Under the pieces are notes generated by a model. That model was not told where the DNA came from and ran no database searches. It saw nothing but the letters and a program-made list of their open reading frames with translations. This document shows positions 1,357 to 16,208 of a stretch of DNA of 23,181 nt, in pieces (position 1 is the first letter of the stretch; each line of letters opens with the position of its first letter). Position numbers and translations under genes: made by a program. This stretch comes from a virus. The stretch is from the IMG/VR virus record IMGVR_UViG_3300050821_007656, positions 1 through 23,181 of that record; one strand, 5' to 3'.

Positions 1357-1740
1357 GTGAACGAAGGGATACACCGCGAGCTAACGAGCCATAAGGTCAA
1401 CGGGCTGAATGAGGCCCTGACGATCACCGTGCTGGATAATCCGGGCCAAGGCAACGCCTGCCACGATTATTTCGTGACCTGGCAAGCCGATGAATCGCAC
1501 GGCGACCGACTCAGGGTGCAATTCCAAAACGGCCCGATCCAAGAGGCCGGCGTGAACGGCATCAGCAACGAAGCCCTGCTGGCTATCATCGAGGATCGCC
1601 TGTTGGACTTCCAGTCGGGCGAGTACGCCTGCCGCGAAAACGCCGTCGCCCTGACGAAGCTGCAAGAGTGCATGATGTGGCTCCAAAAACGTACGCGCGA
1701 CCGCACGGCCCGCGGCGTGGAGGGGACGAATCAGAAATGA
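1357..1740 (+). CDS. Tad1-like anti-Thoeris/anti-CBASS sponge
   Basis: A 127-residue protein with a GTG start at 1357 behind an AAGGGGAG ribosome-binding site. The residue pattern matches what I know of Tad1: NGPIQEAGVNG at 58-68, then ALLAIIEDRLLDFQ, ACRENAVALTKLQECMMWL at about 91-109, and RGVEGT at 119-124. Tad1 proteins sequester the cyclic ADP-ribose signals of Thoeris and some cyclic oligonucleotides of CBASS, so host immunity is not triggered. Length fits the family. The stop overlaps the ATG of the next gene. The assignment rests on motif recognition without a search. Confidence 0.75.
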   Translation: MNEGIHRELTSHKVNGLNEALTITVLDNPGQGNACHDYFVTWQADESHGDRLRVQFQNGPIQEAGVNGISNEALLAIIEDRLLDFQSGEYACRENAVALTKLQECMMWLQKRTRDRTARGVEGTNQK

Positions 1741-2375
1741 GCAATCGAATCACGCTCGCGGCCGTCCTCTTGCTGGCCGTCGCCCCGCTCAGCGCCGCCC
1801 CACCGAAGCTCTCGACCACGGCCTCGCCGCCCACAAATCCGATTGTGGCCGCACAACTCCAATTGTCCTCCGACGTCGCGACCTACTCGGCCACTGGCGG
1901 GAGTCTCGCCGCAATCCAGGCCCAGTTGACGCAACTGAACATCACTGCCGGCGTGCTCACGACAAGTCTTTCGACGTTGCAGACGACGGTTGACGCGGAC
2001 TATGCCGCCCTGAAGGCGCTCATTAACCCAAATCCAACGCCGACACCCGCCGGCCACGTCGTAAGCATCCTGGCCGTGACTTCGCCCGCGACGTGTGCCC
2101 CGTGCAAGAAGCTGGACCCCGTTCTTACCGCACTTAAGGCCAGCGGCGTGAACGTGACGACCTTGGACGGGAACGATCCGACGGTGCTGACCAAATGGAA
2201 CGTCGCATCGATTCCCACCTTGATAATGCAGGTCGATTCCGCTGAAGAGAACGGCGGAAAAACGCCGGGGTCGAGCCGCATGGTCGGGTTCGTCGGCAAT
2301 CCGAACGACCAGGCGATCCTCGCCAAGTGGTATGCCGATACTGTCGCGTGGGCGAAGACGCTGCCGCCGAAATGA
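1737..2375 (+). CDS. Secreted thioredoxin-like protein
   Basis: A 212-residue protein starting at the ATG that overlaps the preceding stop (ATGA). Residues 1-21 form a signal peptide (ITLAAVLLLAVAPLSAA). Residues 25-90 are Ser/Thr/Ala-rich and helical, perhaps a stalk. The C-terminal domain has a CAPC motif at 120-123 in a setting typical of thioredoxin folds, followed by a cis-Pro-like IPTL segment. It could be a thiol-disulfide protein acting in the cell envelope, or a structural use of the fold. The target is unknown. Confidence 0.65.
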   Translation: MSNRITLAAVLLLAVAPLSAAPPKLSTTASPPTNPIVAAQLQLSSDVATYSATGGSLAAIQAQLTQLNITAGVLTTSLSTLQTTVDADYAALKALINPNPTPTPAGHVVSILAVTSPATCAPCKKLDPVLTALKASGVNVTTLDGNDPTVLTKWNVASIPTLIMQVDSAEENGGKTPGSSRMVGFVGNPNDQAILAKWYADTVAWAKTLPPK

Positions 2376-13824: not shown

Positions 13825-14192
13825 TTCCGCCGCCAGGCCGGTTGCCATTTTCGTTTGCCGCAACCACCAACTCGAATTCGACGGCGTGGGCCAATGGCAA
13901 GTCGTTCGCCGAATCCATCGTCGAGATTCAATCGATTGAGAAGGACTTCCGCGAGAAAACTCGGCAAGCGGTTGAAGACTTTCGGCGCGCGGCAAAGCCG
14001 TGCGCGCTCTGTGGGCACGTGATGGAGATTGACGACGCCGGGCAAACGGTCACGGTTTGCGTTTGCATGTACGCAGCTATCGCAAGCTGCATTCCGAATG
14101 AGAATCCGAAGAATCCGGATGTTTTTGGAGTCATCGGATGCCTCGATATTCGCTTGGCCCAACCGCTTGACACGCCCGGCGGTTCCGTCTAG
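13821..14192 (+). CDS. Hypothetical protein with Cys knuckles
   Basis: A 123-residue protein starting at the ATG that overlaps the previous stop. A helix (FREKTRQAVEDFRRAAK) leads into a Cys-rich segment with CALCGHVM and CVCMYAAIASC that may bind a metal. Its last codons contain the -35 hexamer of the promoter for the next cassette. Function unknown. Confidence 0.55.
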   Translation: MIPPPGRLPFSFAATTNSNSTAWANGKSFAESIVEIQSIEKDFREKTRQAVEDFRRAAKPCALCGHVMEIDDAGQTVTVCVCMYAAIASCIPNENPKNPDVFGVIGCLDIRLAQPLDTPGGSV

Positions 14193-14195
14193 AAT
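14167..14195 (+). promoter_or_regulatory. Consensus-like promoter of the CRISPR cassette
   Basis: TTGACA (14167-14172), 17 bases, then TAGAAT (14190-14195): 11 of 12 hexamer positions match sigma-70 consensus. It lies in the end of the upstream gene. Transcription should begin near 14202, just before the first GAGACTTGGAC box. It can drive the Cas12/TnpB-like gene and the array as one transcript. Confidence 0.65.
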
Positions 14196-14204
14196 GCCCG
14201 TGTT

Positions 14205-14311
14205 GAGACTTGGACGTTTTCCGAACAAACCGCGGCCGGTTGCTTCGCGCTTCTGACCTGTCCAAGTCTCACGCGCTGGTGATCGGCCGCGGGAAATAGC
14301 GAGACTTGGAC
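14205..14311 (+). promoter_or_regulatory. Three 11-bp boxes, direct-inverted-direct
   Basis: GAGACTTGGAC occurs at 14205-14215 and 14301-14311, and its exact reverse complement GTCCAAGTCTC at 14260-14270. In RNA the middle copy can pair with either outer copy but not both. The third copy ends three bases before the ATG at 14315, so one pairing would lie next to the start codon. As DNA, the first box sits at the predicted transcription start and could be an operator. Confidence 0.7.
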
Positions 14312-14314
14312 AAA

Positions 14315-15571
14315 ATGCGCTGCGGATGCGGAAAGACCGTCGAGCCGAAGGCCGGCAAAAAAGAGCGCCTGCCGGCCGGCTGGCATCGTCAGCCGAAAAC
14401 GGAACTGCCGCTTTGCCCAAAATGCTGGGGCGAGCGGTACATTCTGCGGGCCGTGACGATCCCCGTCGCCGGCCCCGTGTCGTGCGAATGGCCGGAGTTT
14501 AGGCAGGCGCTCAAGACGGCATGGCAGCGGGCGACGCGATTGACAAATCTTGCCGTGCAATCGTTGCTCAAGCGGGACGTTGTGCGAACCGCAAAGATGA
14601 CGAAGCTGCCGCCGATGCCGGCGGGGAATCTGTACCAGGATTGCATGGTAGAGGACTATGCCGGTTGGAGCCAGTCAGCAGCCGCGATCCTCCGGCAGAC
14701 GGAAGCCAAGTACCGGGCCAAGCGCTACGAGCGGATTTGGCTAGGGCAGACGACGTTGCCGAATGCCCGTTATCCGCAGCCCTACCCGATTCACAACGCA
14801 AACTGGACGGCCGCGTGGATGGAAAACGGCGAGCGTGTGCCGCACGTCACGGTCACGCTTCCGGAAGTCGGGCGCATCACGCTGCGACTTCGCGGCGGAC
14901 AAGATTTCCGCCGGCAACTTGCGGCCTTCGCTCAAATCGTTAGCGGTACGGCAATTCAGGGCGAGTTGTCGCTATACGAGCAACGCGTCAACAGCGGCGA
15001 CCATCGCAACGGCACCACGGAACGGGACGGCGGTGGGGGGAAGTTTCAAACGCGGGTGATGTGCAAGATGGTGGCCTGGCTTCCGCGGCAGGAAGCCAAA
15101 GAGCTGGATGGAACGCTCTTCGTACGCACGGATGCCGATGCGTTGCTCATTGCCCTGGACGCCAAAGATGAACGCGTCTGGATTCACAATGCCGATCACC
15201 TGCCGCGGTGGGTGGCGGAACATCGGCGGCGGTTGAATCGGTGGGCGGATGACCAGAAGGCCGAGCAACGGCCGGTAGCCTCGTTCACAGGCCGGCGGGA
15301 AAGGGCGTGCTTGAAGCATCGCAATCGAATGGACTCGGCCACGCACGAGGCCGCCGCCCAGTTGGTGAATTTCGCGAGTCGTCGCAAGTTCGCCGTGATT
15401 CGCTACGACGATTCGTGCAAGAGTTTCGTGAGGGAATTTCCCTGGGATCGGCTGAAACGATTGATTATCGAAAAGTCCGATGCTGCCGGAATCGAGGTAG
15501 AAGTTGTCGCGACCGGCTCGGTGCCGGAAAAAGTACCAGACCCGCTCGCAGAAACGCAAGGAGTGAATTGA
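14315..15571 (+). CDS. Compact Cas12/TnpB-like RuvC-fold effector (type V-U-like)
   Basis: A 418-residue protein from ATG 14315; an in-frame TTG at 14306 would add three residues. An N-terminal zinc knuckle (CGC at 3-5, CPKC at 34-37) precedes the central region. The C-terminal third resembles TnpB/Cas12: a RuvC-I-like strand LFVRTDADALL (Asp273), an Arg-rich bridge-like helix region, THEAAAQLVNFA, FAVIRYDD where RuvC-II Glu is expected (Asp365), then FPWDRL (375-380) and GIEVEVV. It stops there, without the usual zinc ribbon and RuvC-III Asp. RNA-guided DNA binding without cleavage is my inference, supported by the adjacent array. A degenerate transposon TnpB is the main alternative; no TnpA or element ends are visible. 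Confidence 0.6.
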   Translation: MRCGCGKTVEPKAGKKERLPAGWHRQPKTELPLCPKCWGERYILRAVTIPVAGPVSCEWPEFRQALKTAWQRATRLTNLAVQSLLKRDVVRTAKMTKLPPMPAGNLYQDCMVEDYAGWSQSAAAILRQTEAKYRAKRYERIWLGQTTLPNARYPQPYPIHNANWTAAWMENGERVPHVTVTLPEVGRITLRLRGGQDFRRQLAAFAQIVSGTAIQGELSLYEQRVNSGDHRNGTTERDGGGGKFQTRVMCKMVAWLPRQEAKELDGTLFVRTDADALLIALDAKDERVWIHNADHLPRWVAEHRRRLNRWADDQKAEQRPVASFTGRRERACLKHRNRMDSATHEAAAQLVNFASRRKFAVIRYDDSCKSFVREFPWDRLKRLIIEKSDAAGIEVEVVATGSVPEKVPDPLAETQGVN

Positions 15572-15572
15572 T

Positions 15573-15710
15573 ATGGAGCTACGAACATTGGCCACCGCAA
15601 GGCCAAGTCGGGCAAGCCTGGAATCCGAGCGATTCCGGGGACCGCTCGAAAACGCCGTCACAAAAAGAGCAGGGATAAAGCCTTACGGCCTCGGCCCCTG
15701 CAATGCCTGA
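15573..15710 (+). CDS. Possible 45-aa leader ORF ending in repeat 1
   Basis: ATG 15573 follows an AAGGAG ribosome-binding site (15558-15563) with 9-base spacing. The frame (MELRTLATARPSRASLESER...) ends at the TGA inside the first CRISPR repeat. Third codon positions are less GC-rich than in neighbouring genes, which argues against coding. The stretch may instead be the array leader or part of a guide-RNA transcript. Confidence 0.25.
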   Translation: MELRTLATARPSRASLESERFRGPLENAVTKRAGIKPYGLGPCNA

Positions 15711-16028
15711 GGAACGCGTCAGACATTGCGGGTTTACGTCCACCGGCTCCAAGGTTCCGTCATCGACCCCTGCAATGCCTGAGGAACGCGTCAGACATTG
15801 CGGGACCGCAAGAAGCCGCCGTTCAAGTCGGCGGCGCTGGTCACCTGCAATGCCTGAGGAACGCGTCAGACATTGCGGGATCAAGACCTAGTTTCCCCGG
15901 AACGCTGGATCCTGGTGCCTGCAATGCCTGAGGAACGCGTCAGACATTGCGGGATTGCAAGAAGCCGCCGTTCAAGTCGGCGGCGCTGGTCACCTGCAAT
16001 GCCTGAGGAACGCGTCAGACATTGCGGG
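15697..16028 (+). CRISPR. CRISPR-type array: five 36-bp repeats, four spacers
   Basis: Five identical 36-base repeats lie at 15697-15732, 15769-15804, 15844-15879, 15918-15953 and 15993-16028. Spacers are 36, 39, 38 and 39 bases. The repeat arms CCTGCAATGCCTGA and TCAGACATTGCGGG pair around an 8-base loop with two mismatches, so each repeat can fold into a strong hairpin. Flanking bases differ at each copy, which fixes the 36-base boundary. Spacers 1 and 3 are unrelated. Spacers 2 and 4 differ at only two bases. The array lies 125 bases after the Cas12/TnpB-like gene. No adaptation genes are in the window. Orientation is presumed + from the promoter at 14167. Confidence 0.85.
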
Positions 16029-16171: not shown

Positions 16172-16208
16172 AAAAGCCAACCGGGGCCGGTTCCTTGGTT
16201 GGCTTTTT
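16172..16208 (+). terminator. Intrinsic terminator before the head genes
   Basis: AAAAGCCAACC (16172-16182) is the exact reverse complement of GGTTGGCTTTT (16197-16207). The T-run on one side and A-run on the other would let it work in both directions. It separates the CRISPR-like cassette from the head operon, which would then need its own promoter between 16208 and 16244 or read-through. No convincing promoter was seen there. Confidence 0.75.

What the first reader, a model, noticed from the sequence alone, without database searches (positions are those of the whole stretch)
15805..15992. Spacers 2 and 4 are near-identical and read as GC3-rich coding DNA
The 39-base spacers at 15805-15843 and 15954-15992 differ only by CC versus TT at positions 2-3. 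One frame reads KKPPFKSAALV in both, with every complete codon ending in G or C. In that frame the changes are one third-position (synonymous-type) change and one CGC-to-TGC change. This suggests sampling of the same site from two related targets, or a duplication followed by C-to-T change. In a system with no visible cas1 this raises the question of how spacers arrive.
Basis: partly seen in the sequence, partly recalled or inferred. Interest (0 to 1): 0.72.

Follow-up and report, generated by a model that had tools for sequence, protein, structure and literature searches.

The report
Copied-and-changed guide in phage array
A bacterial virus carries its own small, apparently cutting-disabled CRISPR-like guide system, and two of its four guides are copies of one another that differ by two adjacent letters where target recognition should start, most likely a guide copied inside the array and then changed rather than captured twice.

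Summary
Spacers 2 and 4 (39 nt, same boundaries) differ only by CC>TT at positions 2-3; outside the array the best 39-mer pair in the window has 11 mismatches. The GC-rich wobble column is real, but the reading frame is not unique: the antisense frame TSAADLNGGFL[R/Q] is about as GC3-rich as KKPPFKSAALV.
The array belongs to a phage operon: a Cas12f-like effector with a degenerate RuvC site, a conserved structured RNA, five identical repeats and a candidate terminator. None of nine related records has a detectable cas1.
Sister arrays favour copying. L041 has one guide in two adjacent units plus a one-mismatch copy seven units away, inside a diverged duplicated block; L011 has a 32-bp duplication. 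No target for spacer 2/4 was found in viral, phage, plasmid or 85k-genome collections. I conclude: intra-array duplication, then a two-base seed change; whether that change was selected is unknown.
Beyond the finding, three sister phages carry arrays with 7-10-nt repeats and 26-30-bp median periods, and one sister's spacer matches its own DNA methyltransferase gene exactly.

The parts
14167..14195 (+). sigma-70-like promoter (TTGACA-17-TAGAAT, 11 of 12) upstream of the effector gene
   Evidence: consensus scan; a match, not proof
14306..15571 (+). Cas12f-like effector ORF (421 aa) with degenerate RuvC site and no C-terminal zinc ribbon
   Evidence: PADLOC Cas12f 2.3e-6 and Cas12u3 9.5e-6 (sister best 2.2e-13); AF2 model pLDDT 77; Foldseek best AsCas12f 8j12 E 1.5e-17; VIA Z 21.5 to 7wju, rmsd 7.3, 335 aligned
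15585..15696 (+). conserved structured non-coding region between effector and first repeat; putative tracrRNA
   Evidence: aligned in 7 phages; 9 of 15 consensus pairs show compensatory change; fold of 15585-15732 (includes repeat 1) z -2.7
15697..15732 (+). repeat 1
   Evidence: palindromic hairpin -19.6 kcal/mol, z -5.3
15733..15768 (+). spacer 1 (36 nt)
15769..15804 (+). repeat 2
15805..15843 (+). spacer 2 (39 nt), CC at positions 2-3
15844..15879 (+). repeat 3
15880..15917 (+). spacer 3 (38 nt)
15918..15953 (+). repeat 4
15954..15992 (+). spacer 4 (39 nt), near-copy of spacer 2 with TT at positions 2-3
15993..16028 (+). repeat 5
16172..16208 (+). inverted repeat AAAAGCCAACC...GGTTGGCTTTTT, candidate intrinsic terminator after the array
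   Evidence: inverted repeat I1 and sequence; its long loop keeps it outside the limits of the scan

Best explanation
The locus is a phage operon encoding a Cas12f-like, probably nuclease-dead, RNA-guided DNA-binding protein, a tracr-like RNA and a four-guide array. Spacers 2 and 4 descend from one guide. The copy arose inside the array, most simply by slippage or recombination between the identical repeats that duplicated the spacer2-repeat-spacer3 block, with loss of the second spacer-3 unit; the two copies then came to differ by a two-base change at guide positions 2-3. Those positions lie in the expected seed, so the copies should prefer different target variants. Shown: the near-identity, shared boundaries, operon anatomy, lack of detectable cas1/cas2, and recurrent guide duplication in sister arrays. 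Inferred: loss of cutting, repression by binding, the duplication route and its direction, and any functional difference between the two guides.
For: Identical boundaries and length in an array whose spacers are 36-39 nt. No Cas1 (PF01867) in the window record or nine relatives and no Cas2 (PF09827) in the first seven records, while both models score in control genomes. L041 has TTCATTTGCGGCGGGC in two adjacent units and a one-mismatch copy seven units on; the copies lie in a block of about 110 bp that aligns to a second block with a different middle spacer, the same layout as 2-3-4 here. L011 has a 32-bp exact copy 253 bp apart. 86% of duplicate-spacer candidates in curated arrays are duplications, 1% reacquisitions, 0.9% independent insertions (PMC11472070). 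Effector: Cas12f fold; the RuvC-Glu column reads D/D/I/D/E/N/D in seven members, the first Asp motif has no invariant Asp, and the ordered model ends near residue 402. TldR, a phage-encoded RNA-guided repressor, has a 6-nt seed in which mismatches relieve repression (PMC13418256).
Against: The copies are not adjacent, so simple tandem duplication of one unit does not suffice; a block duplication plus loss is needed. All five repeats are identical, so they carry no trace of the event. No sister array shares these spacers, so the duplication is not seen directly. Two random substitutions would be adjacent only 5% of the time and adjacent within the first six positions 0.7%, which suggests a single event or selection rather than two independent drifts. 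The RuvC argument rests on a weak sequence alignment and a moderate-confidence model; L009 keeps Glu at that column.
Confidence: 0.66

Rival explanations
1. The duplication was kept and changed under selection: the second copy retunes the seed so that one phage covers two alleles of the target (a host strain variant, a paralogue, or a competing phage that escaped by mutation).
For: Both changes sit at positions 2-3, adjacent, in the expected seed, while the other 37 positions are unchanged; P(adjacent and within first six) is 0.007 under random placement. The wobble-column signal says the target is probably coding; in the antisense frame the change is one codon, CGG>CAA.
Against: No target is known in any collection searched, so no allele pair can be shown. 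A single CC>TT double mutation needs no selection. The placement argument was made after seeing the data.
Confidence: 0.25
2. Two independent acquisitions from the same site of two related targets, by a Cas1-Cas2 supplied in trans by the host.
For: Spacer 2/4 looks like coding DNA. A host adaptation module could act in trans (reported for type IV-A3 plasmid systems, in a work cited by PMC11656645). Sister L006 has a spacer identical to its own methyltransferase gene, so new sequence does enter these arrays.
Against: Same two boundaries twice without any target or motif evidence; no cas1/cas2 in the records; independent insertions are about 1% of duplicate cases.
Confidence: 0.12
3. Assembly artefact: two strain variants of a shorter array merged by the assembler, so that spacers 2 and 4 are alleles of one spacer.
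For: The record comes from IMG/VR-type data with unknown reads; the duplicated stretch with its repeats is 111 bp, close to short-read length, and repeats are identical.
Against: The 149-bp offset carries a unique spacer 3 between the copies; L036 and L037, a sister array from two different metagenomes, assembled identically over 17 kb, so such arrays can assemble consistently.
Confidence: 0.1
4. The TT came from the repeat by template switching: spacer 4 begins ATTGC, which also occurs in the repeat (CATTGCGGG).
For: ATTGC is among the repeat's 5-mers.
Against: 58 of 1024 5-mers occur in the repeat on either strand and 2 of 9 possible double changes would make one, so this is near chance.
Confidence: 0.04

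Closest known systems
Type V-F CRISPR effectors (AsCas12f1 and relatives) and solved dCas12f (9n9c, 9n9m)
   Same: overall fold (VIA Z 21.5 to 7wju, 20.4 to 9n9c), small size, array adjacent, structured RNA next to array
   Different: phage-encoded; RuvC catalytic columns not conserved and the chain ends before the C-terminal zinc ribbon and third Asp; about 12-14% identity; no adaptation genes found
Cas12m (type V-M) transcription-blocking effectors
   Same: works-like comparison: RuvC-inactive type V effector that binds DNA to silence (PMC10442227, PMC11656645)
   Different: fold match clearly weaker (Z 10.6); different size; here a tracr-like RNA is present and the carrier is a phage
TldR, phage-encoded TnpB-derived RNA-guided repressor (PMC13418256)
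   Same: phage-encoded, RuvC-dead, likely repressor, short seed
   Different: fold nearer to Cas12f than TnpB (Z 21.5 versus 15.2); a CRISPR-type array with several guides instead of one guide RNA; no flagellin gene link seen
Viral CRISPR mini-arrays (SPV1/SPV2) reviewed in PMC11656645
   Same: small array in a virus without cas1; inter-virus competition is a possible role
   Different: those have one or two spacers and use host effectors and host repeats; here the phage brings its own effector
TIGR-Tas arrays (PMC12045711)
   Same: compact tandem guide arrays in phages, relevant to the micro-repeat arrays of L041, L008 and L011
   Different: Tas proteins carry a Nop domain and dual repeats; here the protein is Cas12f-like and the micro-repeats are single

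Membership tests
CRISPR type V-F (Cas12f) | Cas12f fold | tested here: met
   Foldseek E 1.5e-17 to 8j12; VIA Z 21.5, 335 residues, rmsd 7.3; model pLDDT 77, pTM 0.57
CRISPR type V-F (Cas12f) | intact RuvC catalytic triad (Asp, Glu, Asp) | tested here: not met
   Glu column D/D/I/D/E/N/D, no invariant Asp in first motif, C-terminus after about residue 402 disordered with no third motif; no coordinates were superposed residue by residue
CRISPR type V-F (Cas12f) | C-terminal zinc ribbon inside RuvC | tested here: not met
   no CxxC pair after residue 300 in the alignment; a conserved Cys pair lies at the N-terminus (C37, C40)
CRISPR type V-F (Cas12f) | tracrRNA | tested here: inconclusive
   conserved structured region 15585-15696 with covariation, no Rfam family, antirepeat pairing not established
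CRISPR array | identical direct repeats with spacers of similar length | tested here: met
   (five identical 36-nt repeats, spacers 36-39 nt; two of four spacers not unique)
CRISPR-Cas with own adaptation | cas1 and cas2 | tested here: not met
   0 of 7 records for both families, 0 of 3 more for cas1; records may be fragments
TldR | TnpB-family protein with a single guide RNA | tested here: not met
   array of four guides; Cas12f structures rank above TnpB
viral mini-array using a host effector | no effector of its own | tested here: not met
   effector gene adjacent to the array here and in all relatives found
viral mini-array using a host effector | repeats identical to those of the host CRISPR | not testable with these tools
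   host unknown; no relative found in genome contigs
TIGR-Tas | Nop-domain protein with dual-repeat array | tested here: not met
   Cas12f fold and single repeats

The most novel reading that the evidence does not exclude
In this phage clade guides evolve like gene families: without cas1, arrays grow by copying guides already present and the copies diverge, including in the seed, so that new specificities arise by duplication and mutation rather than by capture. The micro-repeat arrays of L041, L008 and L011 would be the extreme product of the same process.
Probability: 0.2. Interest if true: 0.78.

Novelty: new variant of a known kind. Interest (0 to 1): 0.5.

Why it matters
Duplicated spacers are ordinary. 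What is unusual is the setting: an array whose phage relatives lack detectable adaptation genes, beside a Cas12f-like protein that has probably lost cutting. If guides there diversify by copying and seed change, it answers how an array can keep up with targets without Cas1-Cas2, and it can be tested directly by asking whether the CC and TT guides bind different targets. It also draws attention to a phage clade with very short-repeat guide arrays and a perfect self-match in a phage methyltransferase gene, which point to gene regulation rather than immunity.

Tried and rejected
Target search for spacer 2/4: exact 20-mers in IMG/VR, synonymous patterns for both strands in IMG/VR (19, 36), a wobble-column pattern in 84,980 genomes, blastn in phages and plasmids (12, 13; best E 0.04 and 2, noise), all sister contigs: nothing. 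Spacers 1 and 3 against phages: nothing. Peptide-level scan of all spacers against sister phages: only L006 spacer 5 hit its own phage. Close sister arrays by repeat sequence: none in IMG/VR (11). Effector relatives in INPHARED phages and plasmids: none; in genome contigs: none with the alignment patterns, so the host is unknown. Idea that spacer 2 derives from the tracr-like region (shared ACCGCAAG and CAAGTCGG): p 0.04 by shuffles and 0.11 against window pieces, dropped. Template switching from the repeat: near chance. UV-type CC>TT lesion: fits the letters but cannot be tested, not argued. Self-targeting by micro-array guides of L041/L008/L011: one 13-nt match in all against about 0.35 expected, not convincing. 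Rfam: no match reached gathering score in L041, L008 or L011; in the window stretch only one sub-threshold miRNA match, E 0.49.

Full report
Observation. The array, coordinates and two-letter difference are exactly as described. Outside the array no two 39-mers of the window are closer than 11 mismatches, so spacers 2 and 4 share an origin. The GC3 remark is arithmetically right and carries modest weight: 6.1% of coding 39-mers of this phage have one fully G/C column class against 0.4-0.5% of shuffled or random sequences. But the wobble column is common to a sense and an antisense frame, and the antisense one (TSAADLNGGFLR/Q) is about as good, so the peptide KKPPFKSAALV should not be used as if known.

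Setting. The window is a virus record of 23,181 bases, probably a fragment of a tailed phage: large terminase, lambda-type portal and a capsid protein are recognisable. The array lies between a 421-residue ORF and the portal gene. The ORF scores weakly with Cas12f and Cas12u3 models in PADLOC, and its predicted structure matches AsCas12f best. The RuvC Glu column reads D/D/I/D/E/N/D across seven relatives, the first catalytic Asp is not conserved, and the ordered chain ends before the third motif and the C-terminal zinc ribbon. I infer a DNA-binding, non-cutting effector. A conserved non-coding stretch (15585-15696) precedes the first repeat and is a candidate tracrRNA: in an alignment of seven phages 9 of 15 predicted pairs carry compensatory changes. 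A near-consensus promoter precedes the ORF and a strong inverted repeat followed by T lies after the array, so effector, RNA and array plausibly form one transcript.

Relatives. Scans of IMG/VR found nine related records; two of them, L036 and L037, are identical over the 17 kb held and probably the same phage, leaving eight distinct relatives. Each has repeats directly after the effector gene. cas1 was not found in the window or any of the nine records, nor cas2 in the window and the first six; records may be fragments, so absence is provisional.

Origin of the pair. Three lines favour duplication. First, the boundaries coincide at both ends. Second, sister arrays show guide duplication with divergence: in L041 one guide occurs in two adjacent units (28 bp each) and again, with one mismatch, seven units after the first, inside a block of about 110 bp that aligns to its partner with a replaced middle spacer; in L011 32 bp recur exactly 253 bp apart. 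Third, a large reconstruction of CRISPR arrays classed 695 of 805 duplicate-spacer candidates as duplications, 8 as reacquisitions and 7 as independent insertions (PMC11472070); that base rate comes from chromosomal arrays in general, many with adaptation genes, so it is if anything conservative here. The pair is not adjacent, so I propose duplication of the 2-3 block followed by loss of the second spacer 3. Direction (2 to 4 or 4 to 2) is unknown.

The two letters. Both differences are adjacent and at positions 2-3. Under random placement this is unlikely (0.7% for adjacent and within the first six), though the test was framed after the fact. A single CC>TT event explains the adjacency without selection; selection to cover a second allele explains the position. 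In the phage repressor TldR the first six guide positions are the seed and mismatches there relieve repression (PMC13418256), so the two guides probably prefer different targets if this system behaves alike. That step is inferred. The reading that guide 5' ends face the repeat's 3' end is supported by the shrunken repeats of L008, which keep the 3' end of the full repeat.

Targets. None was found for spacers 2 and 4 nor, in fewer searches, for spacers 1 and 3. The only spacer of the family with a match is L006 spacer 5, which is identical over 39 bases to the antisense strand of codons 14-27 of a DNA methylase gene (PF01555, E 1.2e-24) in its own genome. With an active nuclease this would be self-destructive; with a dead one it reads as self-regulation. 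The missing part of the window's genome could hold a similar self-target for spacer 2/4; this cannot be checked here.

Verdict. The near-duplicate itself is a known kind of event; the system in which it occurs is a phage-borne variant of type V that I did not find in annotated phage or plasmid records or in the open literature I could search (no preprints and few subscription journals were held).

Noticed in passing
L041:9300-11350, L008:7578-8162, L011:7330-8800: Micro-repeat arrays directly after the Cas12f-like gene: 7-10-nt repeats (GCYTCGG in L041 and similar in L008; CGKTCGG in L011), 61, 18 and 38 parsed units, median period 30, 27 and 26 bp, nearly all on the + strand, 29.7 per kb in L041 against 0.53 outside. 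L008 starts with full-size repeats that shrink to their 3' ends. No literature match in one search.
   Followed up: partly
L014:5245-5283 (G001, same phage as L006): Spacer 5 of the L006 array matches its own phage 39/39, antisense to the start of an N6/N4 DNA methylase gene.
   Followed up: partly
L036 and L037: Two IMG/VR records from different metagenomes are identical over 17,182 bases including a five-unit array, so the array was unchanged between the two samples.
   Followed up: no
window 14306-14440: The effector family carries a conserved N-terminal cysteine pair (C37, C40) while the usual C-terminal zinc ribbon is missing.
   Followed up: no
L006:1-600: Tandem 18-bp repeats, about 20 overlapping copies or more, immediately before the effector gene of the sister phage.
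   Followed up: no
window 1668-2375: Thioredoxin-like protein in the phage (PF00085, E 1.7e-4, just under the family cut-off).
   Followed up: no
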